The translations under genes and the position numbers were made by a program. Shown in pieces: positions 12,307 to 64,000 of a stretch of 64,000 nucleotides of DNA. Location of the stretch: the NCBI GenBank assembly GCA_938082375.1, contig CALKCJ010000016.1:1-64000 (forward strand), read 5' to 3'. The notes under the pieces are model-generated. The model did no database searches. It had not been told where the DNA came from and was given only the letters and a program-made list of their open reading frames with translations. Origin of the DNA: an uncultured Thermomicrobiaceae bacterium (GTDB taxonomy: Bacteria > Chloroflexota > Chloroflexia > Thermomicrobiales > Thermomicrobiaceae). Each line of letters opens with the position of its first letter. The stretch's first letter is position 1.

Positions 12307-13173
12307 ATGGAGAAGCGCCGACTCGGTCGCCTCGGACACCTGAGCAGCGTCCTGATCTACGGTGGTGCAGCCCTCTGGAGCGTCCACCCAGACGAAGCCG
12401 ACCGGTCGATTGCGCTCGCGCTGGAAGCGGGTATCAATCACTTCGATACAGCACCCAGCTACGGTGACTCGGAGCTGCATCTGGGACGCTGGATGTCGCA
12501 AGTCCGCACGCAGGTCTTCCTCGCGACCAAGGTGGACGAGCGTGACCGCGACGCTGCCAGGCGACAGATTCACCGATCGCTTGAACGGCTGCGGGTCGAG
12601 TCGGTCGACCTGCTCCAACTCCACGCGGTCAATGACCGTGGCGTCCTCGAGGAGGTCATGGCCCCAGGCGGCGCGCTCGAAGCGCTGATCGAGGCCCGCG
12701 AGGAGGGGCTGACGCGAGGCATCGGCATCACCGGCCACGGGCATCAGGCACCCGCGACGCACCTCGAAGCGCTCCGTCGCTTCCCCTTCGATACCGTGCT
12801 CGTTCCGCTCAACTACCGGCTCTGGCAGGACGATGCGTACCGCATGGACTACGAGCGGCTGGCCGCCGAGGTGCGCCGACAGGACGCCGGTCTGATGGTC
12901 ATCAAGGCGCTGGCCTATCGCCCGTGGTCGGCAGGTGAGGAGCAGCGCTACACGACCTGGTACGCGCCGATCGATGAGCAGCGCGCAATCGACGCTGCTG
13001 TCGCCTTCGTGCTCCGGCGACCAGAGGTGACCGGCCTGGCGACCCCGGGCGACGTGCGGCTCTTGCCACTGCTGATCGCGGCGGAGCGCCGTGCGTCCTC
13101 GGTGAGCGACGCGCAGATTCACGCGGTACTCGACCACCTCCCCGAGTACGAGTCGCCGTTCGTTACGCTCTAG
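12307..13173 (+). CDS. Aldo/keto reductase family oxidoreductase
   Basis: NADP-dependent reductase of the AKR superfamily, about 288 residues. The catalytic tetrad elements are visible: Asp and Tyr in NHFDTAPSYGDSELHLG, Lys in FLATKVDERD, and His in LLQLHAVND. The start is placed at ATG 12307 with TTGGAGCAGGCC upstream; an in-frame TTG at 12295 would add four residues. The C-terminal half looks like the AKR cofactor-binding region (PEVTGLATPGD). The substrate is unknown. It differs clearly from the second AKR at 47438, which sits in a sugar operon. Confidence 0.82.
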   Translation: MEKRRLGRLGHLSSVLIYGGAALWSVHPDEADRSIALALEAGINHFDTAPSYGDSELHLGRWMSQVRTQVFLATKVDERDRDAARRQIHRSLERLRVESVDLLQLHAVNDRGVLEEVMAPGGALEALIEAREEGLTRGIGITGHGHQAPATHLEALRRFPFDTVLVPLNYRLWQDDAYRMDYERLAAEVRRQDAGLMVIKALAYRPWSAGEEQRYTTWYAPIDEQRAIDAAVAFVLRRPEVTGLATPGDVRLLPLLIAAERRASSVSDAQIHAVLDHLPEYESPFVTL

Positions 13174-58110: not shown

Positions 58111-61100
58111 CTACGAGCAGCCGAGGCTGTTGCCGCAGTTAAGGCACTTGTAGCACGAACCGTTGCGCACCGTGATGTGACCGCAGACATCGCAGAACGG
58201 TGCGTCGCCCATGAGCTGCGAGAGCTGCTCGCTCAGCGCATCGGCCAGGCGCGGCCGCGCCGGGCCAGCGGCCTGGGTCGAACCCTGGACCACGGTGACC
58301 AGCTCCTCAGCCTCCTGGCGCTGCCCGTTTTGATAGTGCGGGTTGCTTCTCGGCGGCGAGCTGTTCGGCGGCGCCGCTTCACCGGCGCGCTGCTCCGGCA
58401 CCGGGGCCGCGTTCTCGCTTCGAGGCGGCGCCTCGTCGGCATCGCCGCCGTGGATCGGCGGCTGCACCTGCACGAAGTCGGTGCGGCCCAGGTACTCGTA
58501 GCCCAGCACGCGGAAGATGTAGTCAACGATGGAGGTCGCCATCTTGATGTACGGGTGCCCTTCGACCAGCCCCTGCGGCTCGAAGCGCTGGAAGGTGAAG
58601 GTGTCGACGAACTCCTCCAGCGGCACACCGTACTGCAAGCCCTTGGAGATGGCGATAGCGAAGCAGTTCATCAGGCTGCGGAAGGCCGCGCCTTCCTTGT
58701 GCATGTCGACGAAGATCTCACCCAGCGTACCGTCCTCGTACTCGCCGGTACGCAGGTAGATCTTGTGACCGGCCACCCGGCCCTCGTAGGTGATGCCGCG
58801 CCGCTTCGGCGGCAACGGCCGTCGCCGCGGCCGCTCGACGATGACCACCTGCTTCTCCGGCTGAGCCTCCGGCTCCTTCTCTTCGGCCTTCTTCTCGGCC
58901 CGCGTCGAGAGCGGCTGCGAGAGCTTGGAGCCGTCGCGGTAGATCGCCAGCGCCTTCAGGCCGAGCCGCCAGGCCTCCAGGTAGGCGTCGGCCACGTCCT
59001 GCACGGTCACCTCGTTCGGCATGTTGATCGTCTTGGAGATGGCGCCGGAGAGGAACGGCTGCACGGCCGCCATCATCCGGATATGACCGAGATGGTGGAT
59101 AAAGCGCGTGCCGTGTTTGCCGCACTTGTTGGCGCAGTCGAACACCGGCAAGTGCTCGGGCTTGAGGTGCGGCGCCCCCTCGACGGTCTGCCGGCCGCAG
59201 ATTACATCGTTCGCCTCCTCGATCTGCTGCCGGGTGAAGCCCAGCTCGCGCAGCAGGTCGAAGTGGGGCCGCATCCACTGCTCCGGCGTGAAGCCGAGCC
59301 GCCGCATCGTCTCCTCGCCCAGCGTCCAGGGGCTGAAGGCGAAGGAGAGCTCGAAGACCGAGGGGAGCGCCTGCTCGATCCGGGCGAGATCGGCGTTGGT
59401 GAACCCGCGCTGGCGTAGCGACTCGCGGTTGATGTGCGGCGCGCCCTCGAGCGAAAGCGTGCCGAGCACGTAGCGGAGGATCTCCTCGGTCTGCTCCGGC
59501 GAGTAGCCCAGGCGGCGCAGCGCCGGGGCGATCGAGCGGTTGGCGATCTTGAAGTAGCCGCCGCCGGCCAGCTTCTTAAACTTAACGAGCGCGAAGTCCG
59601 GCTCGACGCCGGTCGTGTCGCAGTCCATCAGCAAGCCGATGGTCCCGGTCGGCGCCAGCAGCGTGACCTGGGCGTTGCGGTAGCCGTGGCGCTCGCCCAG
59701 CTCCAGCGCGCGGTCCCAGGCCTGCCGGGCGGCCTGCACCAGGTACGGCGGGCAGTGCGCCGGATTCAGGCCGACCGGCGGGGTGTGCAGCCCCTCGTAC
59801 TCGGCCGGGTGGGCGTTGTAGGCAGCCCGGCGGTGGTTGCGGATCACCCGCAGCATGTGCTCGCGGTTGGGCGCGAAGCCGGGGAAGGGGCCGAGCGCCT
59901 CGGCCATCTCGGCGGAAGCCGCGTAGGCCTCGCCGGTCATGATGGCGGTGATGGTGGCGGCGATGGCCCGGGCCTCGTCAGAGTCATAGGGCAGGCCCAT
60001 GGTCATCAGGAGCGAGCCCAGGTTGGCGTAGCCGAGCCCGAGCGTGCGGAACTCGTAACTCTTCCAGGCGATGGCGTCGCTGGGGTACTGCGCCATCAGC
60101 ACGCTGATCTCGAGCACGATGGTCCAGAGCCGGACGGCGTGGCGGAAGGCCTCGACGTTGAAGACACCAGTCTCCAGGTCATAGAACTTCATCAGGTTTA
60201 GGGAAGCCAAATTACAGGCAGTGTCATCGAGGAACATATATTCCGAACAAGGATTAGAGGCGTTGATACGCCCAGAGGCCGGGCAGGTGTGCCAATCGTT
60301 GATGGTCGTATCGAACTGGATGCCCGGGTCGGCGCACTGCCAGGCCGCCTCGGCGATCAGGCCCCATAGCTCGCGGGCCTTGACTGTCTTGGAGATGCGG
60401 CCATCAGTGCGCCAGCGCAGGTGCCAGTCGTCGTCGTTGAGCACGGCCTGGATGAACTCGTCGGTCACCCGCACCGAGTTGTTGGAGTTCTGGCCAGAGA
60501 CCGTGGCGTAGGCCTCGCCGTTGAAGTCGGCCGGGTAGCCGGCGGCGATCAGTGCGGCGACCTTCTTCTCCTCCTCGGCCTTCCAGCGGATGAACTTCTC
60601 GATGTCCGGGTGGTCGACATCGACGACGACCATCTTGGCCGCCCGGCGCGTGGTGCCGCCGCTCTTGATCGCGCCAGCGGCGCGGTCGAAGACCTTGAGA
60701 AAGCTCATCAAGCCGGAGGAGGTGCCGCCGCCGGAGAGCGGCTCGCCTTCGGCCCGGATCTTGGAGAAGTTGGTGCCCGAGCCGGAGCCGTACTTGAAGA
60801 CACGCGCCTCGCGCATCACCAGGTCGAAGATCCCACCGGGGTTGACCAGGTCGTCTTCGACCGACTGGATGAAGCAGGCGTGCGGGGTGGGGCGAGAGTA
60901 GGCGTCGGCCGACTTCTTCAGCTCGCCGGTGTCGGGGTCGACGTAGGCGTGGCCCTGGGCGGGGCCGGTGATGCCATAGGCCCAGTACAGCCCAGTGTTG
61001 AACCACTGGGGCGAGTTGGGCGCGGCCATCTGGTGGAGGAGCATGTAGGTGAGCTCGTCCTCAAACGCCTGGGCATCCTCGGGTGTAGCGAAGTAGCCGT

Positions 61101-61485
61101 AACGCTCACCCCAGTCGCGCCAGCAGCCCACCAGCCGCCGGACGACCTGGCGCACACTGCGCTCGGGGCCGAGCACCGGCTGGCCGTGCTCGTCGCGGAT
61201 CGGATTGCCCTGCTCGTCGTACTGCGGGACGCCGGCCTTGCGGAAGTACTTCGAGACCACGATATCGGTCGCAACCTGCGACCAGGGCTCGGGCACCTCG
61301 GCGTCGGTCATCTCGAAGACGACCGAGCCGTCCGGGTTGGTGATCCGGGAGGTGCGGCGAGCCCAGGCGATCGTCTCGTACGGGTTCTGCCCTGGCCGAG
61401 TAAAGACGCGGGCTATGCGCAGCCCTCCCGCGCGTTGCGCGGTGCTGACTGTCTCACTCTTGGTCACCTTCGCTCGCTGTGCCAT
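58111..61485 (-). CDS. nrdJ: Adenosylcobalamin-dependent (class II) ribonucleoside-diphosphate reductase
   Basis: The 1124-residue enzyme reduces ribonucleotides to deoxyribonucleotides without oxygen dependence. Recognisable blocks include [40 protein letters not shown] and [40 protein letters not shown] and [20 protein letters not shown] follow. The C-terminus adds a TSCPD-type domain ([20 protein letters not shown]) and a Cys-rich tail ([22 protein letters not shown]) that may bind zinc or shuttle disulfides. ATG 61485 follows GGGGGACATGAGCG. The upstream region has hairpins and repeats but no B12 riboswitch that I can see. Confidence 0.95.
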
Positions 61486-62137: not shown

Positions 62138-64000
62138 TCAGGCCCCTTCCTGTTCCAGGGAGAGCAGGGGAGAGTCCTGTACGGGCGACGGCATATCACT
62201 GGGATCCGGCGTGGCGGATGACGTCGCTGCGGGCAACGGTACTCCGTCGGGAGCGACACAGCGCACGTGATAGCGCTGGCCAATCCACTCGCTTATGACT
62301 GCCTCGATCACCTGTCGGATGGTAGTGTCGTTCAGCCGCTGGCGATGGAACTCGTGGGGTGACACGAGATAGATCACCTCTCCGGCGATGTGCTCAGGCT
62401 GTGCTGACACAAGCAGGGCGGCGGCCTGGGGATGTCTTGCTTTGACGGCGCCCCGAACGGCCGCCCAATCCCTAACGAGCTGGTCCAGCACAGTGCGATT
62501 ACCGGCCGCGTTTCCCGGGCTGTCGGACGTCTCGCTCGTCGACACTGTGGTCACGTGCGATCTCGCGGACGAAGCAGCCCGTCCAACGGGTACCAGATGC
62601 GGAGCCGCCGCGCGGGGTGGGGGTGCGTTCCTGCTCTCATCCAGGTTGAGCCGGTTTGCTGCGAGGAACTCCCCGACGTTGTTGAAGGCGTTGAAGAACA
62701 GCGGCGTACCCGCGAAGGAGAGAGGGCTCACCGGGCCAATCGTCATGAAGGAGTACTCGCGGCTCTCTACATCGAAAGCCGAATGTGGATCGCGGAAAAG
62801 CCGGTACAGATCTAACGCGGTGCCAGCGGAGCCAACGAGCTGTTGGAGCGAGAAGAACTCTTGGCCAAGCCCGAGGCCGAACCCGAAGAAGAAGATGCGG
62901 ATCTGCTGCAGGATCTCCGGGTGGAGACTGGAGAGCGTCTGGCTTACGAACAGCCAGCCAAGCCCGTACTTGCGCGTGGTGCGCGCCGCATCGACGAGCG
63001 CTCGTCGCACCTGCTCGGCGGCTTCGTTGTCCAGCGCTCGCTCGCGAGGCGCCAGCCGGTGCGCTTCGTCGATGACGACCAGCGTGTTCAGGCTGCGCTG
63101 CTTCTTGAAGGAGCGCTCGGCCGTCAGTGTAAGCCCGTCGAGCAAGCGCTTGATCACCAGTGACTGGATGGAATCGTTCCAGAAGCGTCCTTCGGCCTGC
63201 TCGCGCGAGAGATCGACGACCAGCACCGGCCGCTGCGCTGCTCGGCTGTCCTCCATCTTCAACAGCCACTCGAGTGCACTCTCAACGGTCATCGCCCCTT
63301 CGCGGTCCTTTCGGAAGAGTTCAGCTACCGTTTTCCAATGCTCGTCATAGAACTCGTCCGGACTCGCGTCTTCGAGCGCGGCCGCGAAGCGACGCCGCGA
63401 ATCCGCGCTTCGGTAGAACACCTGTTGAACCGACTGATCGTGAAGGAGCTTCCATGCGGCATCGAACGTCTCTCTCGTGTGTAGCTCGGCGAGCTTCCGC
63501 TTCGCCTTCTGTAACTTCTCGGAGAGGATGCTGCAGGCGAGTGCACGATTCTCGCCCCTCGGGATGGTAAGCCGCTCGAAGAAGGGCGCCTCGTAGAGAA
63601 TCTGTTCAAACAGCTCCCAGCGATCGAGTACAAGACTGCGGACAGTCAGGACGCGGACGTCTTTTTGGATGCTCTCACGGAGTAGTCGCCCCAAGGGGAG
63701 TGGGAACTCTCCTGGGGGAGGAGTGGAACGCATGTCGCGCGCGAACTCCCCCTGGGGGTCGATGATCAGCAAGGCCATGGCGGGATAGCGCGCATAGGCC
63801 AGGAGGATCATCTTGGCGAGCACGGACTTGCCAGAACCCGTCTTGCCGAAGATCCCCAGGTGGTACGCTTCCCCAGCTCCGTCCGGCCCCCGGTCGAAGT
63901 GCTTGAACCAGAGCGGTAGCTTCGGCTTCGATCCGTAGACATGACCGAGATAGAACACTTGATCGCGGTAGCGTGCCAGGAGCAGGTCGAGAGCCTCATC
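62138..64000 (-). CDS. HerA-like ATPase with DnaX-tau-like C-terminal domain (5' end outside window)
   Basis: A P-loop translocase of the HerA/FtsK group. The frame is open past the window edge, reading DEALDLLLARYRDQVFYLGH, so the ORF does not start at the internal GTG of 63958 and the N-terminus is missing. Walker A is GKTGSGKS at 63824-63847, followed by LLIIDPQGEFARD. Walker B is NTLVVIDEAHRLAPRERALD, and a sensor/arginine region WLFVSQTLSSLHPEILQQI follows. After a Pro/Ser-rich linker the last 110 residues (DWAAVRGAVKARHPQAAALL, then EFHRQRLNDTTIRQVIEAVI, WIGQRYHVRCVA) resemble the C-terminal domain of DNA polymerase III gamma/tau. This fusion is unusual. No NurA partner is visible. Confidence 0.85.
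   Translation of the reverse strand, partial: DEALDLLLARYRDQVFYLGHVYGSKPKLPLWFKHFDRGPDGAGEAYHLGIFGKTGSGKSVLAKMILLAYARYPAMALLIIDPQGEFARDMRSTPPPGEFPLPLGRLLRESIQKDVRVLTVRSLVLDRWELFEQILYEAPFFERLTIPRGENRALACSILSEKLQKAKRKLAELHTRETFDAAWKLLHDQSVQQVFYRSADSRRRFAAALEDASPDEFYDEHWKTVAELFRKDREGAMTVESALEWLLKMEDSRAAQRPVLVVDLSREQAEGRFWNDSIQSLVIKRLLDGLTLTAERSFKKQRSLNTLVVIDEAHRLAPRERALDNEAAEQVRRALVDAARTTRKYGLGWLFVSQTLSSLHPEILQQIRIFFFGFGLGLGQEFFSLQQLVGSAGTALDLYRLFRDPHSAFDVESREYSFMTIGPVSPLSFAGTPLFFNAFNNVGEFLAANRLNLDESRNAPPPRAAAPHLVPVGRAASSARSHVTTVSTSETSDSPGNAAGNRTVLDQLVRDWAAVRGAVKARHPQAAALLVSAQPEHIAGEVIYLVSPHEFHRQRLNDTTIRQVIEAVISEWIGQRYHVRCVAPDGVPLPAATSSATPDPSDMPSPVQDSPLLSLEQEGA

What the first reader, a model, noticed from the sequence alone, without database searches (positions are those of the whole stretch)
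62138..64000. HerA-like DNA translocase fused to a DnaX-tau-like domain
The C-terminal 110 residues after a low-complexity linker read like the DnaX gamma/tau C-terminal module. It has a W...V...VK...A.LL start, a central FHR-RL motif and a G-x-R-x-x-V-R-C end. HerA ATPases normally end after the ATPase core and pair with NurA. Coupling to a replisome-type interaction domain would suggest a direct link of DNA translocation or end processing to the polymerase.
Basis: partly seen in the sequence, partly recalled or inferred. Interest (0 to 1): 0.72.

Follow-up and report, generated by a model that had tools for sequence, protein, structure and literature searches.

The report
DNA pump carrying a replisome docking domain
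A horizontally acquired bacterial DNA pump and nuclease (HerA-NurA) has gained, at its tail, a copy of the host's own replication-machinery docking domain (the end of the tau subunit), which suggests but does not prove that this probably defensive DNA-degrading machine is steered to replication forks.

Summary
The gene at window 62138-64000 (minus strand, running out of the window to contig position 64405) encodes an intact 755-aa HerA translocase. After a low-complexity linker comes a domain matching Pfam DnaX_C (PF20964) above its curated cut-off. It is 41% identical to the tau C-terminus of the same genome (E 4e-25). Its confident AlphaFold model matches the KH-like replisome fold shared by DnaA domain I, DciA and tau domain V.

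HerA follows nurA, which follows druA. This druA-nurA-herA operon is widespread and apparently undescribed in the papers I could search. It sits as a 4.9-kb cassette at a site that is empty in two congeners. The HerA core is up to 74% identical to distant phyla but about 57% to family members, so it was acquired horizontally. The extra domain is sister to the DnaX of its own genus, so it was captured from the host afterwards. It is under purifying selection and occurs in two species of one genus. I found it in none of the other HerA loci examined and in none of 400 genomes sampled across the phylum.

Most likely role: docking HerA-NurA onto DnaB or Pol III at forks. That partner is inferred, not tested. 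Decoy and fork-repair readings remain open.

The parts
62138..64000 (-). herA-dnaX_C fusion gene (755 aa in full; the first 135 codons lie beyond the window, to C16:64405)
   Evidence: ORF; Pfam DUF87 1e-13 and DnaX_C 6.2e-8; full-length ortholog 85% identical in G003
62648..64000 (-). HerA ATPase core (residues 1-586 of the 755-aa protein; part inside the window)
   Evidence: DUF87 hit; orthologs in G008, G014 and G098 end here or within a few residues; motifs; dN/dS 0.15
62501..62647 (-). Low-complexity linker, residues 587-635
   Evidence: 63% identity between the two species; start of the CTD model has low pLDDT
62243..62500 (-). DnaX/tau C-terminal (domain V-like, KH-like) domain, residues 636-721
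   Evidence: PF20964; 41% identity to own DnaX; model pLDDT above 90 with matches to DnaA domain I, DciA and tau; tree; dN/dS 0.36, bootstrap interval 0.20-0.68
62138..62242 (-). C-terminal tail, residues 722-755, and stop codon; last 9 residues (LLSLEQEGA) identical in both species
   Evidence: Alignment; low pLDDT
61959..64000 (.). Window part of the 4.9-kb druA-nurA-herA cassette (C16 about 61959-66830; nurA 64407-65570 and druA 65561-66754 lie beyond the window) that is absent from the same site in G001 and G002
   Evidence: blastn of the locus against G001 and G002: matches stop at L002:7958 and resume at 12831

Best explanation
This is the HerA translocase of a horizontally acquired druA-nurA-herA operon that has captured, in this Thermomicrobiaceae genus, a copy of the host's own DnaX (tau) C-terminal KH-like domain. 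SHOWN by sequence: an intact HerA, a linked NurA, a genuine DnaX_C domain whose closest relatives are the DnaX proteins of the host genus, an intact reading frame kept in two species under purifying selection, and an empty site in congeners. INFERRED: HerA forms a hexamer that pumps DNA into a NurA dimer, as solved HerA-NurA complexes do; the six C-terminal domains hang on flexible linkers and dock onto a tau partner (DnaB helicase and/or Pol III alpha), so the machine is concentrated at replication forks, where it loads on DNA ends or on stalled or invading replicons and degrades them. DruA, a GNAT-fold protein, is of unknown function here; a modifying or licensing role is only a guess.
For: Domain identity: PF20964 above cut-off; NCBIfam PRK14950 DnaX; 41% identity to own DnaX, E 4e-25. 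Fold: model pLDDT above 90 over the domain, best PDB matches DnaA domain I (E 3.5e-5, Z 9.5), DciA (Z 8) and E. coli tau C-terminus (Z 6.1). PMC9912922 states that this KH fold is shared by the DciA NTD, DnaA domain I and DnaX domain V, and that DnaA and DnaX have been described to bind DnaB. The invariant Phe of 'EFHR' aligns with the B. subtilis DnaA 'NEF' Phe (weak match, E 0.05), the position I take to correspond to E. coli DnaA Phe46, a DnaB-contact residue (PMC5448010). Retained residues: 15 of 16 invariant DnaX positions kept. Selection: dN/dS 0.36 (0.20-0.68). Capture: sister to same-genus DnaX. Horizontal transfer: HerA core 74% identical to other phyla, 57% to same-family HerA; empty site in G001 and G002. 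Partner: NurA directly upstream, HerA ATPase motifs intact, NurA D77 and D155 invariant in the family.
Against: No interaction was tested. The CTD has diverged (43-49% identity to the DnaX of its genus; dN 0.19 against 0.06 for the DnaX CTD), so it may have changed partner. The sister position has moderate support (87/83), and a tree grouping it with order-level DnaX is not rejected (p-AU 0.11). Flanks of the operon elsewhere are mostly ordinary genes, with only scattered defence genes, so a defence role is not established. Only two species carry the fusion.
Confidence: 0.5

Rival explanations
1. Decoy or competitor: the tau-like domain either baits invader proteins that target the host replisome (an integrated decoy that triggers HerA-NurA) or, when the hexamer assembles, outcompetes tau for DnaB/Pol III and stops replication, an abortive response.
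For: The domain is a copy of the host's own DnaX domain on an acquired, possibly anti-invader HerA, with accelerated change compared with the DnaX CTD (dN 0.19 against 0.06), as expected of an arms-race or decoy module. HerA hexamers would give six-fold avidity (inference). PMC9912922 mentions phage helicase loaders that hijack bacterial replicative helicases.
Against: dN/dS is still below 1 and the conserved residues are kept, equally expected for simple docking. No known phage factor is shown to target this domain here.
Confidence: 0.2
2. Housekeeping repair: HerA-NurA is a DNA end-resection or fork-repair nuclease and the domain brings it to broken or stalled forks; no defence role.
For: HerA-NurA of archaea and Deinococcus has been assigned to end resection (summarised in PMC12977600). 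Replisome tethering fits fork repair.
Against: The cassette is dispensable in the genus (absent from that site in two of four species), patchy in the family, transferred between phyla and linked to DruA of the Druantia anti-phage set; PMC12977600 itself favours an antiviral role for its archaeal complex.
Confidence: 0.2
3. The domain is a structural add-on (self-dimerisation or stability) or near-neutral passenger without replisome contact.
For: DnaA domain I, the closest fold, also self-associates (PMC5448010). The CTD evolves faster than either the HerA core or the DnaX CTD. The other HerA relatives examined do without it.
Against: Purifying selection (omega 0.36, interval excludes 1) and an unbroken frame since before the split of two species with dS about 0.5.
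Confidence: 0.1

Closest known systems
HerA-NurA translocase-nuclease complex (Sulfolobus, Thermococcus, Deinococcus)
   Same: DUF87 HerA with an adjacent NurA gene, conserved ATPase motifs
   Different: Extra tau-like C-terminal domain; nurA overlaps druA; low sequence similarity to the solved complexes
DnaX/tau C-terminal domain (PF20964; E. coli tau domain V, PDB 2AYA and 5FKU)
   Same: Profile, fold and probable host-lineage ancestry
   Different: Here it is on a HerA translocase instead of the AAA+ clamp-loader subunit; 43-49% identical to the DnaX of its genus
DnaA domain I and DciA KH-like domains
   Same: Same fold (Z 9.5 and 8); conserved Phe aligned to a DnaB-contact position in DnaA
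   Different: No significant sequence-profile membership (only DnaX_C hit)
Anti-phage HerA systems (HerA-DUF4297, HerA-Sir2) and the 'HerA/FtsK capture' systems of PMC10853773
   Same: HerA hexamer paired with a nuclease in accessory loci; domain shuffling around HerA
   Different: There, systems capture different HerA domains; here a HerA captures a host replisome domain. The partner nuclease is NurA
Druantia
   Same: The DruA (PF14236/DUF4338) gene
   Different: Other Druantia genes absent from the cassette; nurA-herA instead

Membership tests
DnaX_C domain (PF20964) | Profile score above the curated cut-off | tested here: met
   33.0 bits in the full protein, 36.7 for the isolated domain, cut-off 26.2
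DnaX_C domain (PF20964) | KH-like fold matching tau domain V | tested here: met
   Model pLDDT above 90; Foldseek hits to 5fku_E and 2aya behind DnaA domain I
DnaX_C domain (PF20964) | Common ancestry with DnaX | tested here: met
   41% identity to own DnaX; sister to genus DnaX 87/83, moderate support
DnaX_C domain (PF20964) | Binding to Pol III alpha and/or DnaB | not testable with these tools
   Needs pull-down or complex structure
DnaX/tau clamp-loader subunit (whole protein) | N-terminal AAA+ clamp-loader ATPase (DNA_pol3_delta2, domain III) | tested here: not met
   Only HerA domains N-terminally; the true DnaX is a separate gene at C46
HerA | DUF87 domain with Walker A, Walker B and arginine finger region | tested here: met
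   DUF87 1e-13; motifs
HerA-NurA | Adjacent nurA with conserved acidic residues | tested here: met
   PF09376 3.9e-5, 23.7 bits against 21; D77 and D155 invariant among 17 relatives
HerA-NurA | Hexameric DNA pump feeding a NurA dimer | not testable with these tools
   Known from solved relatives (PMC12977600)
Druantia defence system | DruA present | tested here: met
   PF14236 1.5e-105; PADLOC DruA 3e-116
Druantia defence system | DruB-E (or DruE helicase) alongside | tested here: not met
   The inserted 4.9-kb cassette holds only druA, nurA and herA, between a ribonucleotide reductase and a hydrolase

The most novel reading that the evidence does not exclude
A mobile anti-invader translocase-nuclease operon (druA-nurA-herA), itself undescribed in the literature searched, has captured its host's own replisome-docking domain from DnaX, and uses it to reach forks or as an integrated decoy for phage attack on the replisome.
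Probability: 0.35. Interest if true: 0.8.

Novelty: new variant of a known kind. Interest (0 to 1): 0.56.

Why it matters
If the domain docks HerA-NurA on the replisome, it would be a natural example of a DNA-degrading system being steered to replication forks by a stolen host domain. It would give a direct way to test how HerA-type defence tells replicating invader DNA from resting host DNA. Separately, druA-nurA-herA is a compact operon with mostly overlapping genes, spread over many phyla, for which I found no description. It gives DruA, a protein of unknown function, an obvious pair of partners.

Tried and rejected
Chance or composition: rejected (Pfam cut-off passed, BLAST 4e-25 to own DnaX). 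DnaA_N domain instead of DnaX_C: no profile hit to DnaA_N at E<=10, and the tree places it with DnaX. Assembly chimera: rejected, same fusion and flanks in a second species. Wider occurrence of the fusion: 80 HerA relatives from many phyla and 400 genomes of the phylum (only the window genome and an unrelated replication-initiator-like protein in G026 have a second hit); none found outside the genus. One viral-contig relative was found but its C-terminus was not inspected. The first CTD tree, with very distant outgroups, had long branches, so it was rebuilt without them. Transposon ends: no terminal repeats found at the cassette borders. Defence-island test on 105 flanking proteins: scattered restriction-modification, CARF, reverse transcriptase and mads hits but no clear enrichment, and no control set was run. 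Plasmid search found only distant HerA (about 33% identity or less). Sequence search of PDB: no NurA or DruA relative, HerA only weakly.

Full report
What is there. The minus-strand ORF at window 62138-64000 runs out of the window. In the genome (G000, contig C16) it continues to 64405 and encodes 755 aa, starting one base after the stop of nurA. Pfam finds HerA (DUF87, 1e-13) and, at the C-terminus, DnaX_C (PF20964, 6.2e-8, 33.0 bits against a curated cut-off of 26.2). The isolated domain matches nothing else even at E<=10. In this genome PF20964 occurs only here and in the true DnaX, and the HerA copy scores higher than DnaX itself (36.2 against 28.9 bits). BLASTP to the genome's own DnaX gives 41% identity over 133 aa, E 4e-25.

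Anatomy. HerA core 1-586 with Walker A, Walker B, RTTRKYG and SQT; linker 587-635; DnaX_C 636-721; tail 722-755. The orthologs in the same family (G008, G014) and class (G098) end where the linker begins or within a few residues, so the domain was added after the native end and nothing of HerA was lost.

Is it kept? A second species (G003 = L043, Thermomicrobiaceae MAG Tumba.bins.21, identical record) has the same fusion at the same locus (85% protein identity; 89% DNA identity). Between the two, dN/dS is 0.15 for the core and 0.36 for the domain (codon bootstrap 0.20-0.68). The DnaX CTD of the same pair gives 0.16. The HerA copy is thus constrained, but its dN is about three times that of its DnaX counterpart.

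Fold. The AlphaFold model of the domain (two sequences only) has pLDDT above 90 over the domain. Foldseek's best PDB hits are DnaA domain I (4tps, E 3.5e-5), then E. coli tau in the Pol III complex, DciA and the tau C-terminal NMR structure. VIA-align gives DnaA domain I Z 9.5, DciA Z 8 and tau Z 6.1, with many ribosomal KH proteins at Z 6-8; tau and the KH proteins lie in a range where Z alone is not decisive. [quoted passage not shown] 15 of 16 residues invariant in 19 related DnaX proteins are kept. In a weak alignment to B. subtilis DnaA (E 0.05) the invariant Phe of EFHR falls on the NEF Phe. I take this to be the equivalent of E. coli Phe46, a DnaB-contact residue (PMC5448010); that equivalence is my own mapping.

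Origin. In the CTD tree the two HerA domains are sister to the DnaX of the same genus (87/83). This is moderate support, and the alternative placement with order-level DnaX is not rejected (p-AU 0.11). The HerA core, in contrast, is 72-74% identical to proteins from MAGs labelled Deltaproteobacteria, Clostridia, Gemmatimonadota and others, but only 57% to HerA of Thermomicrobium in the same family. The flanking genes are adjacent without the cassette in congeners G001 and G002 (matches stop at L002:7958 and resume at 12831). The simplest history is that a mobile cassette arrived from outside and then captured the tau domain of its new host; loss of the cassette in G001 and G002 instead of gain is not excluded.

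The operon. Upstream of herA lie nurA (PF09376, 23.7 bits against 21) and druA (PF14236, 1.5e-105). Among 80 HerA relatives from many phyla, nurA was detected in 79 and druA in 65, several loci being cut by contig ends. Most druA-nurA pairs overlap by a few bases (NurA starts estimated from alignments), which suggests translational coupling. I found no paper that describes druA-nurA-herA, and PADLOC has no model that hits this NurA. The DruA model (pLDDT 90) has a GNAT-like fold, as PMC10853773 says for DUF4338. Phage Mu Mom, a DNA-modifying GNAT-fold enzyme, is among the top structural matches (Z 9.7) but tied with ordinary acetyltransferases.

How rare. 80 HerA loci and 400 genomes of the phylum contain no other HerA with this domain, apart from the second species above. 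In the phylum sample every genome with DnaX_C has one copy except this genome and G026, whose second, weak hit (found) is at the end of an unrelated replication-initiator-like protein.

How it most likely works. Solved HerA-NurA complexes are HerA hexamers with a NurA dimer on one face (PMC12977600); in the HerA-DUF4297 anti-phage complex DNA enters from the HerA base (PMC11291478). Six tau-like domains on linkers would therefore tether the pump to DnaB (one gene) or a DnaE (two genes) at the fork. Shown: the parts, their integrity, their history and selection. Inferred: hexamer, docking, partner, target and purpose. Rivals are a decoy or competitor of tau, a fork-repair nuclease, and a structural add-on.

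Verdict. The functional link to the polymerase is plausible but untested, and DnaB is an equally good candidate partner.

Noticed in passing
C16:64407-66754 (L002:10407-12754), beyond the window; L043-L122: druA-nurA-herA is a compact overlapping operon found in many phyla (65 of 80 HerA loci hold druA, 79 hold nurA); no description found in the papers searched. DruA model is GNAT-like, with phage Mu Mom among its best structural matches.
   Followed up: partly
L141:4846-5974 (G001), equivalent to window about 60248: The ribonucleotide reductase gene next to the cassette (window 58111-61485) carries an in-frame insert in congener G001, with intein-like ends (NASNPC/FTGDTRI ... ANGVYI), absent in the window genome.
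   Followed up: partly
L056:3025-5064 and L059:3818-6022: Two other HerA relatives carry a different C-terminal extension with a small shared helical motif (LIDKILxWA...RLRRGESLTxGQ...), so the HerA tail seems to be a site of repeated domain addition.
   Followed up: no
L133:2185-4395 (G026): A 737-aa protein with a replication-initiator-like N-terminus has a weak DnaX_C hit at its end, a possible second non-DnaX use of this fold.
   Followed up: no
L027, L028 (G016, G018): HerA of this family is broken into frameshifted or stop-containing fragments in G016 and G018, consistent with gain and loss of an accessory system.
   Followed up: no
L143 (IMGVR_UViG_3300031586_000373): One viral-collection contig of 37.8 kb holds a HerA 65% identical to this one.
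   Followed up: no
window 62141-62167: The last nine residues (LLSLEQEGA) after the domain are identical in both species, although the tail around them varies; function unknown.
   Followed up: no
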